From Protonemura montana (lineage: Eukaryota; Arthropoda; Insecta; Plecoptera; Nemouridae), in assembly GCA_947568835.1 (NCBI GenBank), contig OX387605.1, positions 18,170,418 through 18,234,417 on the forward strand: a DNA stretch of 64,000 nt, given 5' to 3'. The translations under genes were made by a program, and so were the position numbers. Shown piece by piece: positions 4,521 to 63,793 of this stretch. Each line of letters begins with the position of its first letter. Positions within the stretch are counted from its first letter, which is position 1. A model generated the notes under the pieces. The model did no database searches and was not told the origin of the DNA. It saw only the letters and a list, made by a program, of their open reading frames with translations.

Positions 4521-6767
4521 CTAACAACCAAAGTTGCAAGAATGAAGTTGCTCACACGTTCAACCCAAACAAAAACATTAAACCATGCATGTAAATAACT
4601 GTTTGTTATTTGCAGAGCGGTTTCTTGAAATGTTTTCTTTCACTCGCTTGGACACCACTCGAGCACACCTTAAAATTGATTTTAAAGGTGACTACATCTT
4701 CTTGCCAGCGAGAGTAGATATGAAAAAAACAGTTTTCCATCTTTCATTGAAACGGAGTTAATTTCACAGTCAAGTTTATGAATGATGAAGAGATTCCCAC
4801 ACAAATAGCTATGAATATGCTAGTAATTATGTGTCACGTGCTTGAATATTTTTTGCACATCCACGAAAATAGTCGTGTAATAACACTTTTGAGCTCCTGT
4901 CCTCCATTACAGCGGGTCCTCCACGTCAACCACATAGTATTCATACATGAAGTTCAGCCCGGAACTACAATAGGGCAGCAAAACGCGGAGGTGGTGTTTA
5001 GTCTTGGTCGGTGGTCGCATAGCGTTTCCCGGCGAACCACGGCTTGGCGGCACTAACAAGCGGGTTGACGGGTTGTTTTCACTTTTCACGACACCAGACA
5101 CTTAGACCTGAATTTCAGACGAGAGTGGGCTAGGAACTTGTCAAGACTATTTTGTTGGCGAATCAGAAAACCGAATTTGAAATCTTGTCTTCAGAAAAGA
5201 AGGACCGCACATTTCGCTCCACGCACCAGAATTCGCTGTAAAATATAATAATTACTCTTTTAGAGACATTGGAATCTATTTTCTTCGTAGGTTTTGGAAA
5301 GTGTTTGGGGTAGAATAGAATAGCGCGTCAGTGTAGTTTTTTATTATGTGGCTGCACGTTTGAATCATTTAGCTAAGCTATTCTACTTCCAAAAAAATCA
5401 TTTCTGGCCTACAAAGTTGGTCAAAATACACTATTTCCGATGAGCCGGCATCACTGTACCGGCACGAGACACCATTTTGTACAAAGGAAATTCGATTTAT
5501 TATCTTTTATCACTCTCTCATCTTTATATCTCAACAAATTATCGCGGGCCTTTCTCCCATGTATTTATAAAATAACCCCTTCATTAACTCCGCTACGTAT
5601 TACAATTAGAGTATGAAGGTCCATTCATAAAATCGCTCTCGGCGAAAACACAAACAAAACCAGTGAACAGTTTGCTTAGCGTCCAATGCAAAGAGTCGGT
5701 ATTTAGAGTAAATCATTAAAGGAGAGGCAATGAGCATTTAATGGAAAGAAAAGATGTGCAGCCGACAACAAAAACTCGGTGCATCTCTAAAGCCACGGCC
5801 GATTAAAGACATCGCGGTCAAAACTTTCAAAGTCGTCGTTGTGCGGAGAGTACACACGGTTGCAATCTGGGCCATCGATAATTTCCCCGCCGAAAACGGC
5901 GTACGAACTCGTTTGGATACATATTACCTATGCGGCGGGAAGGTTGACTTTCATTGGGACCTACTTATTAATGCAGATGTACTTTCGGTCAAGAGCATCG
6001 GTCCCTTGCGGCTATCGGAGGAGGAAATGCAGACCAGTCTCCGATTTATGATGAGAAGGGTTATTTGAACCAAATTTAGAGATAAAACTCGGTTTTTTTA
6101 ATCTTGAACGTAAAGGATATTTCTCAACTGTATGCATTTTGACTAGAATTAAGAACGAATTGCTTCACAGTTTACGAGTCCAGCCTACGTGGGTGGTTTC
6201 TCTTCGTGTATACACATAGTTCATGACTGTGAGAAATTGGGGAGCACTTAATTGTTGTACCACCTAATGAGACTGATAGGAAAATTACTGGCGATTCTCG
6301 GGTAAAATGTATAAATTAGCACCGCTTTTTGTCCACCGTAAACAGTCATAGATCATTACGACCGTGTGTTTGTTTTCGATTTCAAACGTTTCAATTAAAA
6401 GCATAAAACTCGACACGCACATCCGCGTAATTTTATACGCGTTCCACGAATTCTCTGCGAGATAATTCTATGTCATTACGCGCTGTCTTCTTTTTTTTTT
6501 CGGCGATCTGAAACGATATGAGATTTCGTCTAGCGGTTTCGTACAAAACCTGGACAACTTTAAAATTCATTATTAGATCGCGATTTTTTTCGGTTTAATA
6601 CAATAGAGAAATCTCACCGACAAGACGAACTAGCGTTCCGCTGGAAAACATGATGGGTGTCAATTATTTAAACATCAGCAGACAATGCAACCAGTTGTTA
6701 CAAAGCGAATTTTAATAAATGCCCTGAATTATACTTATGAACGCGATGAGCAGTAGGTACGGCAAGC

Positions 6768-27261: not shown

Positions 27262-28930
<1,669 letters not shown>

Positions 28931-39115: not shown

Positions 39116-42100
39116 TCATGATGAGGGTGTGTAGGTGAGAAGTCTGCAGGCGATGGCGATGGAGACGACCCACAGACTGAGAGAGGAGCTACCGCAACCT
39201 CCACACACCTTGATCTCGCTCTCCTAGATAGGAACAGAGATATCAGCCACCAATAATGCGGGGTAAAGCCATCACCAAGCAAAGCTGAGAGTTAGAGAGT
39301 TAGTACTTAGTATTATATGTTTGTAGATCAGGCATGTTGACTCTAGAATTGGTTAGCTGAGTTTTGGGGACGAAATCACATTTGGGGCTGCACTGTGGAA
39401 AATGAAATTATCTTTGAACTTGTAGGGAAAGTTTAGCGAGCTATGTCAGACTACGACAGCGAACCCAAAAACTATGACAACTATGGCCCGGGCAGAGGGG
39501 TGAAAGAAGAGCCGACAGGATTGCCACGCCCATAATCAGCATTGCGGCCAAAAACGTCTGGGAGTTTGCAACTCAAATACTTTATATAGGTGACCGGTTT
39601 AGATGTAGGTTGGAAGTCTCTTAGGGTTGGGCTTTCAGTGGTTCGTCAAGAACCTAACAAACCGTTAAGTTGTTATTTTTTTTGCAACAGCCAATCAAAA
39701 GACGTTTTTTGTTTGTTAACGGTCCGTTCATTATCTAACTTGCCACTGAAAAGCAGTTATTTAGAGTACATTTCTTAAATCTCTTGTATGAATGAGAATA
39801 ATTAGGAATAATGTGTCTTCTACTTATGTATCTGTTTAATACGTTTATTTCATAGTGAATTGATATGTGAGCTTTGATAATTTTCACGCCTTTCCGGATT
39901 GAGCTATCATCTCAATAACATTAATAAGTAATTCTCACACATGCTGCATGCCCCGACGTCAAAGAGCCCGACCCCTGGCAACACCCGCTGTTCATCATTG
40001 TTCTCACCTCAGGATGGTAGTTCATGCACTTGCCCGGCCTCCTCCTGTACATGGCCTCCTGCGGACGACTCCTGCACGTGGGTGTGGCAGTGTCGTAGCT
40101 GACTTCATGCGGCGATATGCTCAGCTGTTTGCTGCCACATGGACACAGCGTGTCGACCACCAACAGGATCAGGTTGCTGCGAGGAATTTTCTGCACGCTG
40201 AACGGCCTGCAACGCACATAGCGAAACGTCCTCGCAGTCAGCATAGGGTCGGTTGCAATGTGGTAGGAAACTTGAACTGGTACTGCTGATTCTAATAATG
40301 TCATAGGGAATTAATTCTGGCAAGTCACTATTCAATGCTGATAGGAACTTTTTCGATCTTGATCAGCCGCGTCGTGTCAGCTTAACGCTTAAGTGGTAAT
40401 TGATCAATACCAGTATTCTGAAACTTTTTACAGAGAGATGTGATTTATCTTTGCAATCTTTAGCAAAATTGATGATCACACCTCACCTCACAGGAAAAAT
40501 GTTTTAAATGGCTTATGGTCAAGAAAGGTCCGCTATATATTCTGTTCTGGTTCATTTATTGGTTGCCAACATTGATTCGAAGTACACAGCAAGGAGTCAT
40601 CGAATTTCCACTAAGAGCGACAAGATGCTATGTACCCAGACAAAAATCAGAGGTGTTTTCTGAAGACACAAATATTCTTTTATATCTCTACAAGTAAAAT
40701 TAACCAAAATTGTCTGAAAGCTGAACTCAAATCTCAAATTCGTATTCTATTGCCTCTTCCTTGCCATTATGAATCCCGAAGATAGTTGCATGGATTTCAA
40801 TCTCTTACCGTTCACAGCCAGTGACATGGCAGTTGGTGAGCTTTCCCTTGAGAGGGTTGAACATGCCACTGGTGTTCAACCTATCCGCCTGCAAAGAGTA
40901 GAGGTCGACCCTACGGTCGCACGGCCGCGGCTGAGTCCTGTTGAACGTGGCCGATGTGGTGCCCGCAGGACTCACGTACGGCGGCATGATCTTTGGCTCA
41001 GGAGGAGGACTCTCTTCCTGCGTCCAAGTTGGCTCTTCTTTCACCCCGCTGCCCGGGCCATAGTTGTCATAGTTTTTGGGTTCGCTGTCGTAGTCTGACC
41101 CTTCGACGGGTTCTGTCGGGAGGTGAGAGAAATACATTTTTACATTTTTGGGATGGGTATTTGTTAAAGAGACAATGGTTTGTTTTACGAAGCAAAATCG
41201 CCAACTACGTTATACATCATTCGGGTGTTCGATTCTGGTGGCCTGCTATCCTGGCTTAAATATCTGCAATTCCTAACAAATCCTCCAAGCAAATTTAGGG
41301 ATTGTTCCTATGCCAAGATGGCACGACCGTATTCTTAATCCCTAACCATAGGATTGAAGGACACCCTGTCAAGCTTTAAGTGTCTTTGGTCCTAGTGTCC
41401 TCTCCCCAAAAAATATTCTCCGTAACTAAAAGATGATCCAGTACTGGGAATGGGGAACGAAGAGGTCAGTTTAATCCTGTAGCCAGACGAGACAAACTGG
41501 GATTAAATCCATTGAAGAGAGAGGAACAAAAGGAGAAAAAGTAGATTTATTTTGACCACAGTCTTATTTTCACTGGAAATATTTGCGTTTCATAATAACT
41601 TACCTTCGTCACCTGCATGAGCTTTGGCCATTTGAGGATCCCAAAGATGATATAGATTTGCTTGAATGGCTATCCACAAAAACTGACCAAAGACCCACTG
41701 AGCCAACCATTTCATAGACTGGAACGGCTGCAAAAGAGAAAAAATACATTCTAGTTTTGTCCTTTTGCACTGCAAGGGACATTTCTGCCAATGCGACGGC
41801 GTGTCGAGATCCTAAATAATAGTAACAAGAATCATTTTAATACATGGAGCAGAAACCATAGAGCTAAAAGCTATTTTCTGAATCCAATCAATAGATAAAC
41901 AATATGATCTGTCAATAAATGCTACTCACAAAAATCAAATATATATATATATATATATATATCAATATATCACAAATATTTGAGTGATACTACAAGGAAA
42001 TTGTCAATTACAGTGTATTTATATCGTGCTATACTCACCGATTTCATGCGAGTTCCTACGTCACTGTACGGATTCTTCTGTTCAAAACAAGCGCCCTGGT

Positions 42101-45100
42101 AATCGTAGACCGCCACTTTCTTGTAGATCCTATCCTGGACAAGCGAATCCATGATGGTGCCATCGATCTGGCCGAAGAACTTGCCCGTGTGGTCGGCGGT
42201 CTCAGAGAGGATGATGAACCCGTTGTCGTCGAGCACGTAGCAGTCCAGTTCCTCGGAAGCACACGTCTTCTTGCATCCAGAACACTGGAGGGAACCACAT
42301 GACACAGGAATGTAAGCATCTGGCAACTAGCCTGGAGATATGAGAATATTCAAATATGCACATAATTTAATTATCATTTTTTGTTTCTAAGATTTCTCGT
42401 TACTCTTGCATTTGGGATTTGAAGTCACTAATATATATGTGGTGCTCAGCGTCGCACTGTTTTGTTTTTACAATGGGCTCTGTGGCAGTTATTAATAAGA
42501 ATGTTCTGTCTATCCGAAGAACGGGGCAACTCAATTAAAAGGTTTTTTATATGAATCCATGTTGTCGAGTGGTTAATGATACGAATGACAAGTGAAACTT
42601 TTACGAACATCAGTTCCTCCAACCTCTCTACCAAACAGAACTAGTAACGATTTTTATGACCCCCCATCCGGTACAGCTAACCCAACACTGGGTTTCCAGA
42701 AATGCCACCTGTTCGAACACAGCATCTCTGACTGAGGGTACTTACCGTTGAGGTGATATTGAGAAAATGCGAGGCGAGCGTTGAGTGCAAGAACTGGAGG
42801 CCGACGACGCCGGCCGGGGCGCGGTGCCCCTGGTGCTCAAGGAAGACTGCGTGGGTGGCTGTGACTAACGGACGAACGGAGGTTGCTGCGTCGAAGGGTA
42901 CGGTGAACACAAAGCTGTCGGGCTCGATACTGTACTGGTCAACGGCACGCTTGTACCACACCTCATCAGTGGCGCGCCGGTTACTCTCACTGAAATGGCT
43001 GAAAGGGAATAATGGGGGAGGAGAGATAAAGCGAGATTTAGGGGAAACTATAAGAGGTATATGGAAGAACACGAACTCCATTTAATGTAAAAAAAGTGTT
43101 CAGATTTCAAACCGGGATTCTGCACATAACAGATATTTGATATAAATGGGTTTAGCCGATTTCCACTTTTGTGGCAGATCTCTGTTGACATGTCGCTGTC
43201 ACCTTTGAGATATTAGTTCATAAAAGTGTTCATGAAAACACACAAACTTAAGAACATGATTGATAATGATTTCCCATCAAGCAAAGCCTCGGGAAATTTA
43301 AGAAGACGCTAAAAAATTAATCGAAGTTGAGACGTCATCGCAGCACAATTGATTTATCAGTTCTCAAGTTAGATTGCAAGAGAAAACACATTCTTCAATT
43401 CACTGATGCCCCTGAAATTTAATGGGTACAGTGAGATAAAATCAAGGTTACAAACACCTCCCTCTAGACCAATCAGAGCCCGAGGCCACGGCCTTGGAAG
43501 ACAGTACCCGATTGGCAACGGTAGAGGGCGGCAACGTAGCCTAAACGGGAGCTAGCCCTAAATTTGGTGACTATTTGAACCTATGTTTTATTATATTCTA
43601 TGGATATAAGTTGCTTTGGGTTAGATTTTCATTCGATTTCGTTGATAAGCTTTCTCCCCTCTGATTTCTCAATGCTAGAGAAATATAAATGAGATGTGCG
43701 TATGGAAAATAATAATAACAACACCAGTGGGCAATGAGCGAAAATTTAACACGAGTCTTTGGACGATACTGCTTGAACTTACGGTGGAGACTGCTCGTTG
43801 AGAATGGTGAAAGGGGCGTGGTCTTGCCAGCGTAGCAGACCGCTTCGCGTAGCGATGAACGAAGTGGTCACCCCAAACATCTGGTAGCCTTGTCTGCAAA
43901 GACGGGCATTTCGTTAGCCAACTGTCCACAGCGAGCGCTTAAGAAGGACCAGAACTAGTGGCGCGTAAAATGCTATATAATTAATGGGGATTTTAATTGG
44001 CCTCTACACGATTTGAAATTACAACGAAGTTCATTTATTTTGTTGGAATCTATTATATTTTACACGCCACTGGTAAGATTACAAGATGGAATTAAAGAAA
44101 TCGGCACCTGTTTGGACAAAAGACATACAGTCTAGCTCGCGAGAGAAAATACCAGCCCAATTATTGCCCCCAATCATTGTAATACCAACTCACAAATGTA
44201 ATTTCAATTGTAAGTTTAGTCGCGGGATTTAAAAATACTTATAATATCAGCAAAATGATTTCCTGGATTGTTTAAGCATGTAGAAAAATTCTTATGATAG
44301 CTCGAAGTACAAAAGATCTTGACACGACAAACGCTTTAGAAGGTAAGAAAAATGGCAAAGAGTAGTTGAGATTATTTGTAGTGTTTTAAAAAATGACCTA
44401 CAGTCCGCATGTCACCCTAGAATTACCGGTGGTGCCTTTGCCGGAAAAGTATGTTCTCTCGCCACGAAGTATAATGGTGTTAAAAAATCGTGGCGCCATC
44501 TATGTTCTCGGAGATGTAAATGCTGAAAGACAATATTTGAAACTATATGCCGATTTAATAAACTGTAGTTGTAGAAGACAACATTACTATTAAATAAGCA
44601 TTCCGGTTTCATTCAAGTCACACGATTATTATCAACAGTTCCGTTGTGGTTAGCTAATTTTAAAAAGAAGATAAGCTGTTAGTATTTACACAGAAATACG
44701 TACGGTTTTTCCTGGATGCTAAGAAAGGACACTGGCCATGAAGTCAAATGCATATCGCCAACAAGCCATGAAATAATGTAAATAATGACATTTTGTGCAA
44801 ATAAGGTGCTAGTTAGGTGATGGTAAGGTTTTATGTTATGTTTTTGTGTGGTATGGTATCACCCATAGACATTTTTTAAAGTGAAGCTAGCTCAATAGCT
44901 AGACAATATTGTCTAGCACTAATCTATAAATAGCAGTCTACGTCTCGCGAAAAAATCATATTGACTATAGCAAAAATACCTTGCTTGTATTACACTGTAC
45001 ATATATATTATTGTCTTGTCCTATTAGTAAATGTCAGGTCAGCTTCCTAAATGCAACGAAAATAATGTTTATAGCAGAGTTCCCTCACTATGTCTCATTG

Positions 45101-60790: not shown

Positions 60791-60815
60791 AGAGAGAGAG
60801 AGAGAGAGAGAGAGA
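60791..60815 (+). repeat. AG dinucleotide microsatellite
   Basis: A pure (AG)12 run about 160 bases upstream of the first visible alpha2/delta exon. Confidence 0.9.
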
Positions 60816-63793
60816 ACATACTTTCCCGGCGCCACCGCTCGTTTTGAGTGACAAGGGGGCCAACTGTCCTTAAAAAAACACACTACAAACCATCTCCGAT
60901 AATGTTTGCCATTTTATTTTGCTATGAAGCTTTTGTCATGCCAAGATCTTTTGTTGTTCGAGCTTTACTGAGAATTGTTCTACCAATTACAAGTATTTTA
61001 AAATCCCGCTACTAAAACCATAACTGAAATGTACAAGTTAGTAACAACGCTAAGGAAGATCCATGTACTGGTGGTATCTTCACTCGCTGACTAGACTGTA
61101 GCCCAGTTCGTTGAACGTAGAGAATACGCATCCATAGTCGCGGAAAGGAAATTGAGAATGATGTCATAACTGCCAAAAATAGATAATATTAAGAGTTACT
61201 GCTAATAGCCAAACAAATATATGCCAAATTCAATGTATCAAGTAGCGTTTATTTTGATTCAGAGACTCATCACTCTTCAATACAAAATTAGTTTCAAGTG
61301 TTTTCCTATACAATATTCGTGAGTTATTGTGAGACAACATTGAAAACGTTATTATGGTATATAGAAGTAAATAACGTGCTTTACGGAACATCGCATGACT
61401 TTACACAGCCATTTCGTGGTTTGTTGTTAAGACTACGTTGCGTTTTCAAAGTGTTTCCGATTTTCGAGTAGCGTTTATTCGTATCGTCACGCATTCTCTT
61501 CCTTTATCACCGCACCGTGCAAAACAAGATCCAAATAGACGTCTCGAAGTTTATGTCTTCCGTGCCGTGCTAGAACATCGAGTACACACACACCCTAGTG
61601 TTGATAATCAGTTTTAATCACTTGCAAAGTTTACCGAATCATATCACATGCATGAATCCCCGGTATATATACCCTCATGTTTTCCAGCTTAGAATAAACA
61701 TGAACATCGCTTCGATATTAATCTACCTGGAAAATAATTAAAACTTCAATAACCCAATCATCGCATTAGGAAGTAATAATTGAAATTTACGTGGGAGAAA
61801 ATGTAAATCCGATGTACAAGCTTGCCAGTGAATAAAGAACGGGAAAGATCAGAGATCGAAAAAGATTTTAACGGATTTCCATAAACAAATACCAGATACC
61901 ATGCCGAATATATAATTGCTCCCGTGGGGGACTTAACGCCTCTATTTAGAGAGCAGTAATTAAATTAGCAATTAAAGGGTGATTTTTCTAATGAGGAACG
62001 CCGGTGATTGTTTTGTCAGAGTACCTAGCAAGCAGATGGTAATATTGATTAGTATTTAACTCGTGGGTTAGTTTATTGCATTGCATTACTGAGTGAGAGG
62101 GCAGACGGGAGTTATTGCTCGCGGAGGGAGGTTTGCGAATCGCGAGAGGGGGTGCCGGGGCGCGAGACACAGAGATTATACCCTCATTTGAATAACGTAC
62201 ACAGGCGATTCGTAGAGTCGCCGTTGACGACGGGGTGGATACGACGCGAAGGGGTTCGGTTACACAGAGTTAGGGTGAGTTAGATTTATATACGAAGTAA
62301 CCTGCAGTTTTTTTTTTACTAATAAACAATGGTTACCCGTAAAGGCAACCTCAGATCAAAGATGTCGCCAGATTGTCATGGGAATATTGCATATTATTAA
62401 GCCAGGTAGGAAGGTAGATATTATTGTAACAAAGTAATATGAATTTTCATGCGGTTCAGATTATGAGCATCCTCATTCATAGCCATGAGATTCGAACTCC
62501 TGAAATAAGGACAAACTTTCCGTGAAGACGAAATTTCAATAGAAAGTCAAGAAATTGCTCGGCAGTCTCAACTAAATGTGGCGTGGGGTATTCCTAGGCG
62601 ACGAAAGGCAGCCAATCATAAAGCAGTGTCTGGAAAAACAACTCGATCAAAGATTCCTGTAAAATTTTCTGTGCAGACAAACTTCTCAAGTCTCGAACCG
62701 CGAGGCGCGAATCGACGAATTTATTCGTATATAAAAAAAATAAACAGTGTCGTCGAGAGACGAGTTACGTTATAAAACATCACATTCTTTTTGACATTTT
62801 CGATTTTACAACATGTTTTCCCAAGTTGCGTGACCTGAATGACCCAAACCGGGTGGCAAGCCCAAACCAGCGGTCCACGCCGACGAACGGGTGGGGAACT
62901 TAACGGTAAGGGGGTATGGTGGACGAGGACTTGACGATAAAGAAAGAGAAGGAGGGAACAACGAAGACAAAAGCATTAGAGACCAAAGAGAACGGCGATC
63001 GATGGATGCTATGGTACAGAGAGGAGGCAGGAAAGCCAGCAGCAGCCCGCTCCTGGAATCTGGAATTCGAAACTTTCGAAAAGGGGAAATTTTGCGGTCG
63101 AAACTGTTCGGGTATCGTGGAGTTCTCACAAGTTGACGCCCTTTGAGGTCAACTATTGGTGAACACTAATCATCACATTGGTGATAATGATTTTGGGTTG
63201 GAAAAACTGTTTGAACGTATCCATGTGGGGCGTGGAACATTCGATGCATTTGACCAGTAAGTACGTTGGTAAGGGGTCTTAGCTTCTCGAGCGAGAAAAA
63301 AAGGTGAACATCTAAGACTTTCAAAGTAAGCAGTGTTTTCTTGTACAAACCCAAGCGGCAAGTATTATAACCTCATTGTTCAACCATGCCTCAACTTAGT
63401 GTTTAAACAGTGTAGTTTAAAAATTGCAAGGCAACATTCGTGGCAACAATCTACTTAGAAAGAATTACTCTGATCGCGTGAAAGTTAACAATTATTTATA
63501 TCTCCAATCTTTCATTGAAAGGCAAAAAAACACAAAATGTTTCATATGAAACGATGAAAATCACAAATCTTTTAACTCTGCCGTCCATTTATAATCCCGC
63601 CTAAGTGGGGAGGGCTGCGCAATGCAAACAAAACACTCTCACCAGGTCCCGAGTGTATTATGCCCTTGCGTCCTGAAGGACAAAATGTACGAGCTGGCTC
63701 GAGCGAACGAACGAACAAGGATTTATAAGAAGGACTAAGGACGATGACGCCACCGAGCAGAGCGTCGACCAGGATTAAGTCGGTGGAAACCCG

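What the first reader, a model, noticed from the sequence alone, without database searches (positions are those of the whole stretch)
39446..41098. Intronic inverted copy of an alpha2/delta exon segment: candidate RNA-editing duplex or splicing switch
Seen: 39,446-39,516 is the reverse complement of exon sequence 41,028-41,098 with 2 mismatches in 71 bases. It lies in the last intron of the same gene, with one 199-base exon (40008-40206) in between. Known: in insect and mammalian ion-channel and receptor genes, ADAR editing sites in exons pair with intronic complementary sequences, and long intronic duplexes can govern exon choice. Inferred: the pre-mRNA could fold into a duplex of about 70 bp that offers the exon for A-to-I editing or loops out exon 40008-40206, whose loss (199 bases) would shift the frame and remove the GPI-anchored C-terminus. 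The high identity means the copy is young or under constraint.
Basis: partly seen in the sequence, partly recalled or inferred. Interest (0 to 1): 0.78.

Follow-up and report, generated by a model that had tools for sequence, protein, structure and literature searches.

The report
Stray inverted exon fragment in intron
A 70-base piece of a calcium-channel subunit exon has been copied backwards into a nearby intron of the same insect gene, most likely a recent scar of DNA repair; it could fold the RNA into a duplex, but nothing found here shows that the duplex is used.

Summary
Window 39445-39516 is the reverse complement of 41028-41099 at 70 of 72 positions (core 68 of 69), far beyond chance. 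The genome search returned only these two places. The host gene is a voltage-gated calcium channel alpha2/delta subunit on the minus strand of an insect. The source lies in a coding exon, the copy in the last intron; one 199-nt exon lies between, and skipping it shifts the frame. Best explanation: a young templated (DNA-repair or template-switch) insertion of exon sequence in inverted orientation. The copy has exon-like base composition, flanks without other genomic matches, no target-site duplication and no repeat family. The editing or splicing reading is physically possible: predicted duplex -143 kcal/mol, and ADAR-type deaminase domains are encoded in the genome. But no RNA, relative or second individual could be examined, and a young near-perfect pair needs no selection. 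Incidental A-to-I editing of nascent RNA is a fair possibility; a selected switch is unlikely on present evidence. A new member of a known kind, low interest, with one cheap RNA-seq test worth doing.

The parts
41028..41099 (-). Source segment inside coding exon A of the alpha2/delta gene (reads [23 protein letters not shown] plus part codons at its ends), starting 13 nt downstream of the exon's 3' splice site
39445..39516 (+). Inverted copy in the last intron (best core 39445-39513); G+C 0.54, against 0.41 and 0.47 in its flanks
40809..41112 (-). Exon A of the alpha2/delta gene (304 nt), containing the source
   Evidence: splice-site consensus and reading frame; no RNA
40008..40206 (-). Exon B (199 nt), lies between the arms; within the stretch that matches the VGCC_alpha2 C-terminal part and vertebrate alpha-2/delta-1 chains; skipping shifts the frame
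39116..39223 (-). Last coding exon with stop; Cys-rich stretch and hydrophobic tail of the kind that acts as a GPI signal (GPI reading recalled, not tested)
39224..40007 (-). Last intron, holding the inverted copy
39618..39752 (.). Interspersed repeat with inverted ends (MITE-like; name is my reading), about 100-117 bp from the copy and not part of it

Best explanation
A short templated insertion. A break or stalled replication fork in the last intron was patched with about 69-72 nt copied from the neighbouring exon of the same gene in reverse-complement orientation (polymerase theta-type end joining, fold-back or inter-strand template switching, or a DNA/RNA patch). It is young and most likely a neutral passenger. 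As a by-product, the unspliced pre-mRNA can form a duplex of about 70 bp between exon A and the last intron until that intron is removed. Shown: the pair, its place, its near identity, flanks without other genomic matches, no target-site duplication at the match edges, exon-like composition of the copy. Inferred: direction of copying, age, repair origin, neutrality.
For: Only two places returned for a 258 Mb genome, 1.5 kb apart. Copy G+C 0.54, near exon A (0.58) and above the last intron (0.41, 0.47 and 0.36 in three stretches), so exon to intron is the likely direction. Flanks 39216-39444 and 39514-39632 match only themselves in the genome at E up to 1. No target-site duplication of 2-11 nt at the match edges. 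The only other translated match to exon A in the genome is this copy. Low-copy local duplications occur elsewhere: of 25 random 10-kb stretches, 1 holds an inverted pair (L030, 581 bp, 99%) and 5 hold direct ones; of those five, L017, L021 and L026 look tandem or like a larger duplicated unit, while L012 (73 bp at 93%, at the stretch's edge) and L040 (109 bp at 98%, 2.2 kb apart) are short and dispersed. Drosophila end joining makes templated insertions in direct and reverse-complement orientation (PMC2895639, passages); yeast fold-back insertions run from 2 to about 150 bp (PMC11724301, passages); human templated insertion polymorphisms without target-site duplication are read as break repair (PMC5110952, passages).
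Against: No short (40-200 bp) low-copy inverted pair was seen in the 250 kb of random sequence (0 of 25 stretches), so events of exactly this kind are not common. At 69-72 nt it is longer than most experimental inserts (average 5.5 nt with wild-type mus308 alleles in one Drosophila assay, PMC2895639; majority under 14 bp in yeast, PMC11724301). Junction microhomology and the empty site could not be examined, since no relative or second individual was available. The source segment falls outside the part that aligns to solved vertebrate structures, so the reverse direction, intron to exon, is not excluded; the right flank's G+C (0.47) is not far from the copy's.
Confidence: 0.8

Rival explanations
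1. ADAR editing duplex: the intronic copy acts as an editing complementary sequence, so that adenosines of exon A in nascent RNA are deaminated and some recoding reaches the protein.
For: Predicted duplex -143.4 kcal/mol against about -11 for each arm alone; the minimum-energy fold of the 1,696-nt pre-mRNA stretch keeps 68 arm-to-arm pairs; A_deamin domains at two places in the genome, one presumably ADAR and one ADAT1 (the assignment is recalled, not tested). Alpha2/delta genes are edited in Drosophila (stj, PMC4965139, passages; CG4587, PMC6369821, passages). In bumblebee brain 916 of 4,510 hyper-edited regions have a reverse-complement match within 2 kb, against 147 of 4,510 for same-strand matches and 73 of 4,510 random regions (PMC6453909, passages).
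Against: No RNA data. Complementarity is what any inverted copy gives. 20 of 26 exon adenosines are non-synonymous, so unselective editing would probably be costly. The only A-C mismatch, which may lie outside the copy, is at a synonymous site (41030). The copy leaves with the last intron, so editing must win against splicing. In the bumblebee data most hyper-edited regions (3,594 of 4,510) had no such match.
Confidence: 0.1
2. Splicing switch: the duplex loops out exon B (or crowds the exon A 3' splice site 13 nt away), giving skipped transcripts that lose the membrane-anchoring C-terminus.
For: Exon B lies between the arms and its loss shifts the frame into a tail without the hydrophobic segment. 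In human genes, exons surrounded by paired conserved complementary regions are included less often (PMC8052449, passages).
Against: No transcript data; one arm is itself inside an exon, unlike the intronic pairs of that study; no conservation can be shown. The AG in the copy (39481) is no better than several others in that intron on a simple pyrimidine count.
Confidence: 0.05
3. Hairpin-RNA source: the fold-back is diced into endo-siRNAs that act on the gene's own mRNA.
For: The duplex would be long enough (inference). Hairpin RNA loci that silence other genes are described in Drosophila (PMC10317233 and PMC10292708, search listing with abstract starts only).
Against: The loop is 1.5 kb and contains an exon; the duplex exists only before splicing in the nucleus; no small-RNA data.
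Confidence: 0.02
4. Assembly artefact.
For: Reads were not available, so it is not excluded.
Against: The contig is of chromosome size (27.2 Mb). A 72-nt displaced inversion with one or two differences and flanks of its own is not the usual kind of artefact (recalled: long adjoining palindromes or haplotype duplications).
Confidence: 0.03

Closest known systems
Templated insertions of alternative end joining (polymerase theta / mus308) and fold-back or template-switch inversions
   Same: Short sequence copied from nearby DNA, reverse-complement orientation, no transposon hallmarks
   Different: Longer (about 70 nt) than most and from a template 1.5 kb away; junctions cannot be read without the ancestral site
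Class 2 templated sequence insertion polymorphisms (human)
   Same: Insert without target-site duplication or poly(A)
   Different: Those are described as coming from distant regions; this comes from the same gene; polymorphism not tested
Inverted duplicated sequences in pre-mRNA, substrates for ADAR hyper-editing
   Same: Same-transcript complementary arms predicted to make a long duplex
   Different: Here one arm is coding exon and neither arm belongs to a repeat family in the searches made; editing not shown
Editing complementary sequences of insect ion-channel genes
   Same: Exon-intron pairing possible in a calcium-channel subunit gene
   Different: Known cases (recalled) are conserved and only partly paired; this is near perfect and of unknown conservation

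Membership tests
Templated (repair) insertion | Insert identical or nearly so to a nearby template | tested here: met
   70/72 or 68/69
Templated (repair) insertion | No target-site duplication, not a member of a repeat family | tested here: met
   (duplication tested at the match edges only)
Templated (repair) insertion | Junction microhomology and empty site in relatives | not testable with these tools
   no relatives held (statement); searches found none
Transposable element | Several genomic copies of the insert, or a target-site duplication | tested here: not met
   two places only; no target-site duplication at the match edges
ADAR-edited exon with intronic complementary sequence | Stable exon-intron duplex possible | tested here: met
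   predicted only
ADAR-edited exon with intronic complementary sequence | A-to-G changes in RNA | not testable with these tools
   no RNA data
ADAR-edited exon with intronic complementary sequence | Conservation of the pairing | not testable with these tools
   no relatives held
RNA-structure-controlled alternative splicing | Isoforms that lack the looped exon | not testable with these tools
   no RNA data
Voltage-gated calcium channel alpha2/delta gene | VGCC_alpha2 domain over cut-off, VWA domain upstream | tested here: met
   (VWA_3 and VWA_2 just at their cut-offs, VWA just under)

The most novel reading that the evidence does not exclude
A chance repair insertion has given this species a lineage-specific, nearly perfect exon-intron duplex in a calcium-channel subunit gene, which recodes the acidic linker by A-to-I editing and/or suppresses exon B to make a form without its membrane anchor: an editing or splicing switch caught at its birth.
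Probability: 0.1. Interest if true: 0.6.

Novelty: new member of a known kind. Interest (0 to 1): 0.22.

Why it matters
If passive, it is a clean example of how break repair could seed new inverted repeats inside genes, the raw material of editing substrates and hairpin RNAs. If the duplex is edited or alters splicing in neurons, it would show directly that a single mutation can create such a substrate in coding sequence, and before/after alleles might still segregate, so the question of how editing sites are born would become testable.

Tried and rejected
Transposon capture: the copy has no other genomic match and its flanks (39216-39444, 39514-39632) match only themselves; the MITE-like repeat nearby is separate and more diverged from its relatives than the copy is from its source. 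The rest of the last intron (39753-40007) was not searched against the genome. Complex multi-patch insertion: a short-word search of 39380-39620 against the window, filtered to matches of 11 nt or more within 6 kb, gave besides the main pair five matches of 11-16 nt, taken as chance. Relatives: scans of viral and prokaryotic contigs with 66 aa of exon B found none, as expected for an insect gene. Paralogues: two other alpha2/delta loci exist, but the exon A protein finds only itself and the inverted copy, so the paralogues do not help with direction. A new 3' splice site in the copy: the AG at 39481 is unremarkable against other AGs of that intron. Papers: 8 searches; the query for RNA editing, alpha2delta, intron, inverted repeat, exon and calcium channel found 12 papers with at least 5 of the 6 terms, 10 listed, and none of those titles or abstract starts reports such a structure.

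Full report
Observation. Window 39445-39516 and 41028-41099 are reverse complements at 70 of 72 positions; the higher-identity core is 68 of 69, because the last three bases, which hold the second mismatch, may belong to the flank. Shuffled windows give longest exact inverted matches of 14-20 nt in five mononucleotide shuffles; here 51 nt pair without a break. A search of the own genome (258.5 Mb, 34 contigs) returned these two places and no other at E up to 0.001, and a translated search with the exon A protein at E up to 10 returned the exon and the same inverted copy only. The tool warns that its DNA searches skip simple repeats and very common words.

Host gene. The exon with the source (40809-41112), the next exon (40008-40206) and the last coding exon (39116-39223) lie on the minus strand; boundaries were read from consensus splice sites and an open frame, not from RNA. 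The joined C-terminus matches VGCC_alpha2 just over the Pfam cut-off (23.9 against 22 bits) and vertebrate alpha-2/delta-1 chains (residues 142-232 of 247, E 0.00014 for the best); an upstream exon carries the same Pfam domain strongly (64.3 bits), and a VWA exon lies further upstream (VWA_3 and VWA_2 at their cut-offs, VWA just under). The source segment itself falls in a linker outside the aligned part. The genome is that of an insect: 129 matches to 7tm_6, the insect odorant receptor family (the family's restriction to insects is recalled). The species is not known to me.

Anatomy. In transcript order: source arm (13 nt into exon A), rest of exon A, intron, exon B (199 nt), about 490 nt of the last intron, the copy, about 220 nt more intron, last exon. 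The two arms give a predicted RNA duplex of -143.4 kcal/mol, against about -11 for each arm alone, and the predicted minimum-energy structure of 1,696 nt keeps 68 arm-to-arm pairs. Of 26 adenosines in the exon arm, 20 would change an amino acid if read as G.

Origin. The copy's G+C (0.54) resembles exon A (0.58) more than the last intron (0.41, 0.47 and 0.36 in three stretches), so the exon is the likely donor. The flanks match nothing else in the genome at E up to 1. There is no target-site duplication of 2-11 nt at the match edges. A MITE-like repeat (39618 or 39633 to 39752) lies about 100-117 bp away: besides the window's own pair, one search scored 40 further rows, all 79-90% identical (375 candidates at first look, so a lower bound; a few rows may be parts of one element), and one search set its extent with six of them. 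Its relatives are more diverged than the copy from its source, so it is probably older; whether it made the site fragile is unknown. Divergence of the copy is 2 of 72 or 1 of 69 (95% binomial ranges 0.3-9.7% and 0.04-7.8%), so the age is poorly bounded but compatible with a recent event.

Background. With one set of BLAST settings (E up to 1e-4, low-complexity filter on) and the rule that each arm has no other hit in the sample (not in the genome), 1 of 25 stretches holds a low-copy inverted pair of at least 40 nt and 85% identity (L030, 581 bp, beside tandem arrays) and 5 of 25 hold direct pairs (L012, L017, L021, L026, L040), of which L017, L021 and L026 look tandem or part of a larger duplicated unit; none holds a short inverted pair like this one. 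Without the low-copy rule, 4 of 25 (L012, L022, L030, L038) hold some inverted pair within 5 kb, in the rows shown with arms that have many hits, except L030. So the feature is uncommon but belongs to a spectrum of local duplications, and the sample is too small for a rate.

Mechanism. Short templated insertions, some in reverse-complement orientation, are a known product of polymerase theta end joining in Drosophila (PMC2895639, passages) and of fold-back repair in yeast, from 2 to about 150 bp with the majority under 14 bp (PMC11724301, passages); short-range template switching makes reverse-complement copies in great apes (PMC7954356, passages); human templated insertion polymorphisms of class 2 lack target-site duplications (PMC5110952, passages). 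The present copy fits these, though it is longer than most.

Function. Alpha2/delta transcripts are edited in Drosophila (stj, PMC4965139; CG4587, PMC6369821; passages only), and in bumblebee brain hyper-edited regions are enriched for reverse-complement matches within 2 kb (916 of 4,510, against 147 of 4,510 for same-strand matches and 73 of 4,510 random regions; PMC6453909, passages). This genome has two places with A_deamin domains. So editing of the nascent RNA is a fair possibility. Yet inverted duplications are, for most organisms of one survey, about as common in pre-mRNA as same-strand ones, while they are strongly depleted in mature mRNA; in a few species, honeybee among those named, pre-mRNA also shows stronger depletion (PMC7006430, passages). 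Having one is not evidence of use. Human exons surrounded by conserved intronic pairings are included less often (PMC8052449, passages), which makes partial skipping of exon B conceivable. Without RNA or relatives, neither can be shown here.

Verdict.

Noticed in passing
window 39618-39752: MITE-like interspersed repeat with inverted ends in the same intron; 40 further rows in the genome scored, 79-90% identical, a lower bound.
   Followed up: partly
G000:C3:24149263-24149469 and 24187031-24187213 (L033, L032): Two further VGCC_alpha2 matches about 38 kb apart on the same chromosome, covering the same part of the profile, so probably two more alpha2/delta loci.
   Followed up: no
G000:C14:1574191-1652280: Seven odorant-receptor matches with equal scores at steps of 12,986-12,987 bases: a very recent tandem array or an assembly repeat.
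   Followed up: no
L030:4653-6214: Inverted pair of 581 bp arms, 99.3% identical, 402 nt apart, beside a tandem array of about 70-nt units.
   Followed up: no
L040:2827-2935 and 5163-5270: Low-copy direct duplication of 109 bp at 98%, 2.2 kb apart: a direct-orientation counterpart of the finding.
   Followed up: no
window 44280-44460 and 60810-60983: Inverted pair, 71% identical over 182 columns, 16 kb apart.
   Followed up: no
window 27766-28170: Minus-strand ORF with an Arf-family GTPase domain.
   Followed up: no
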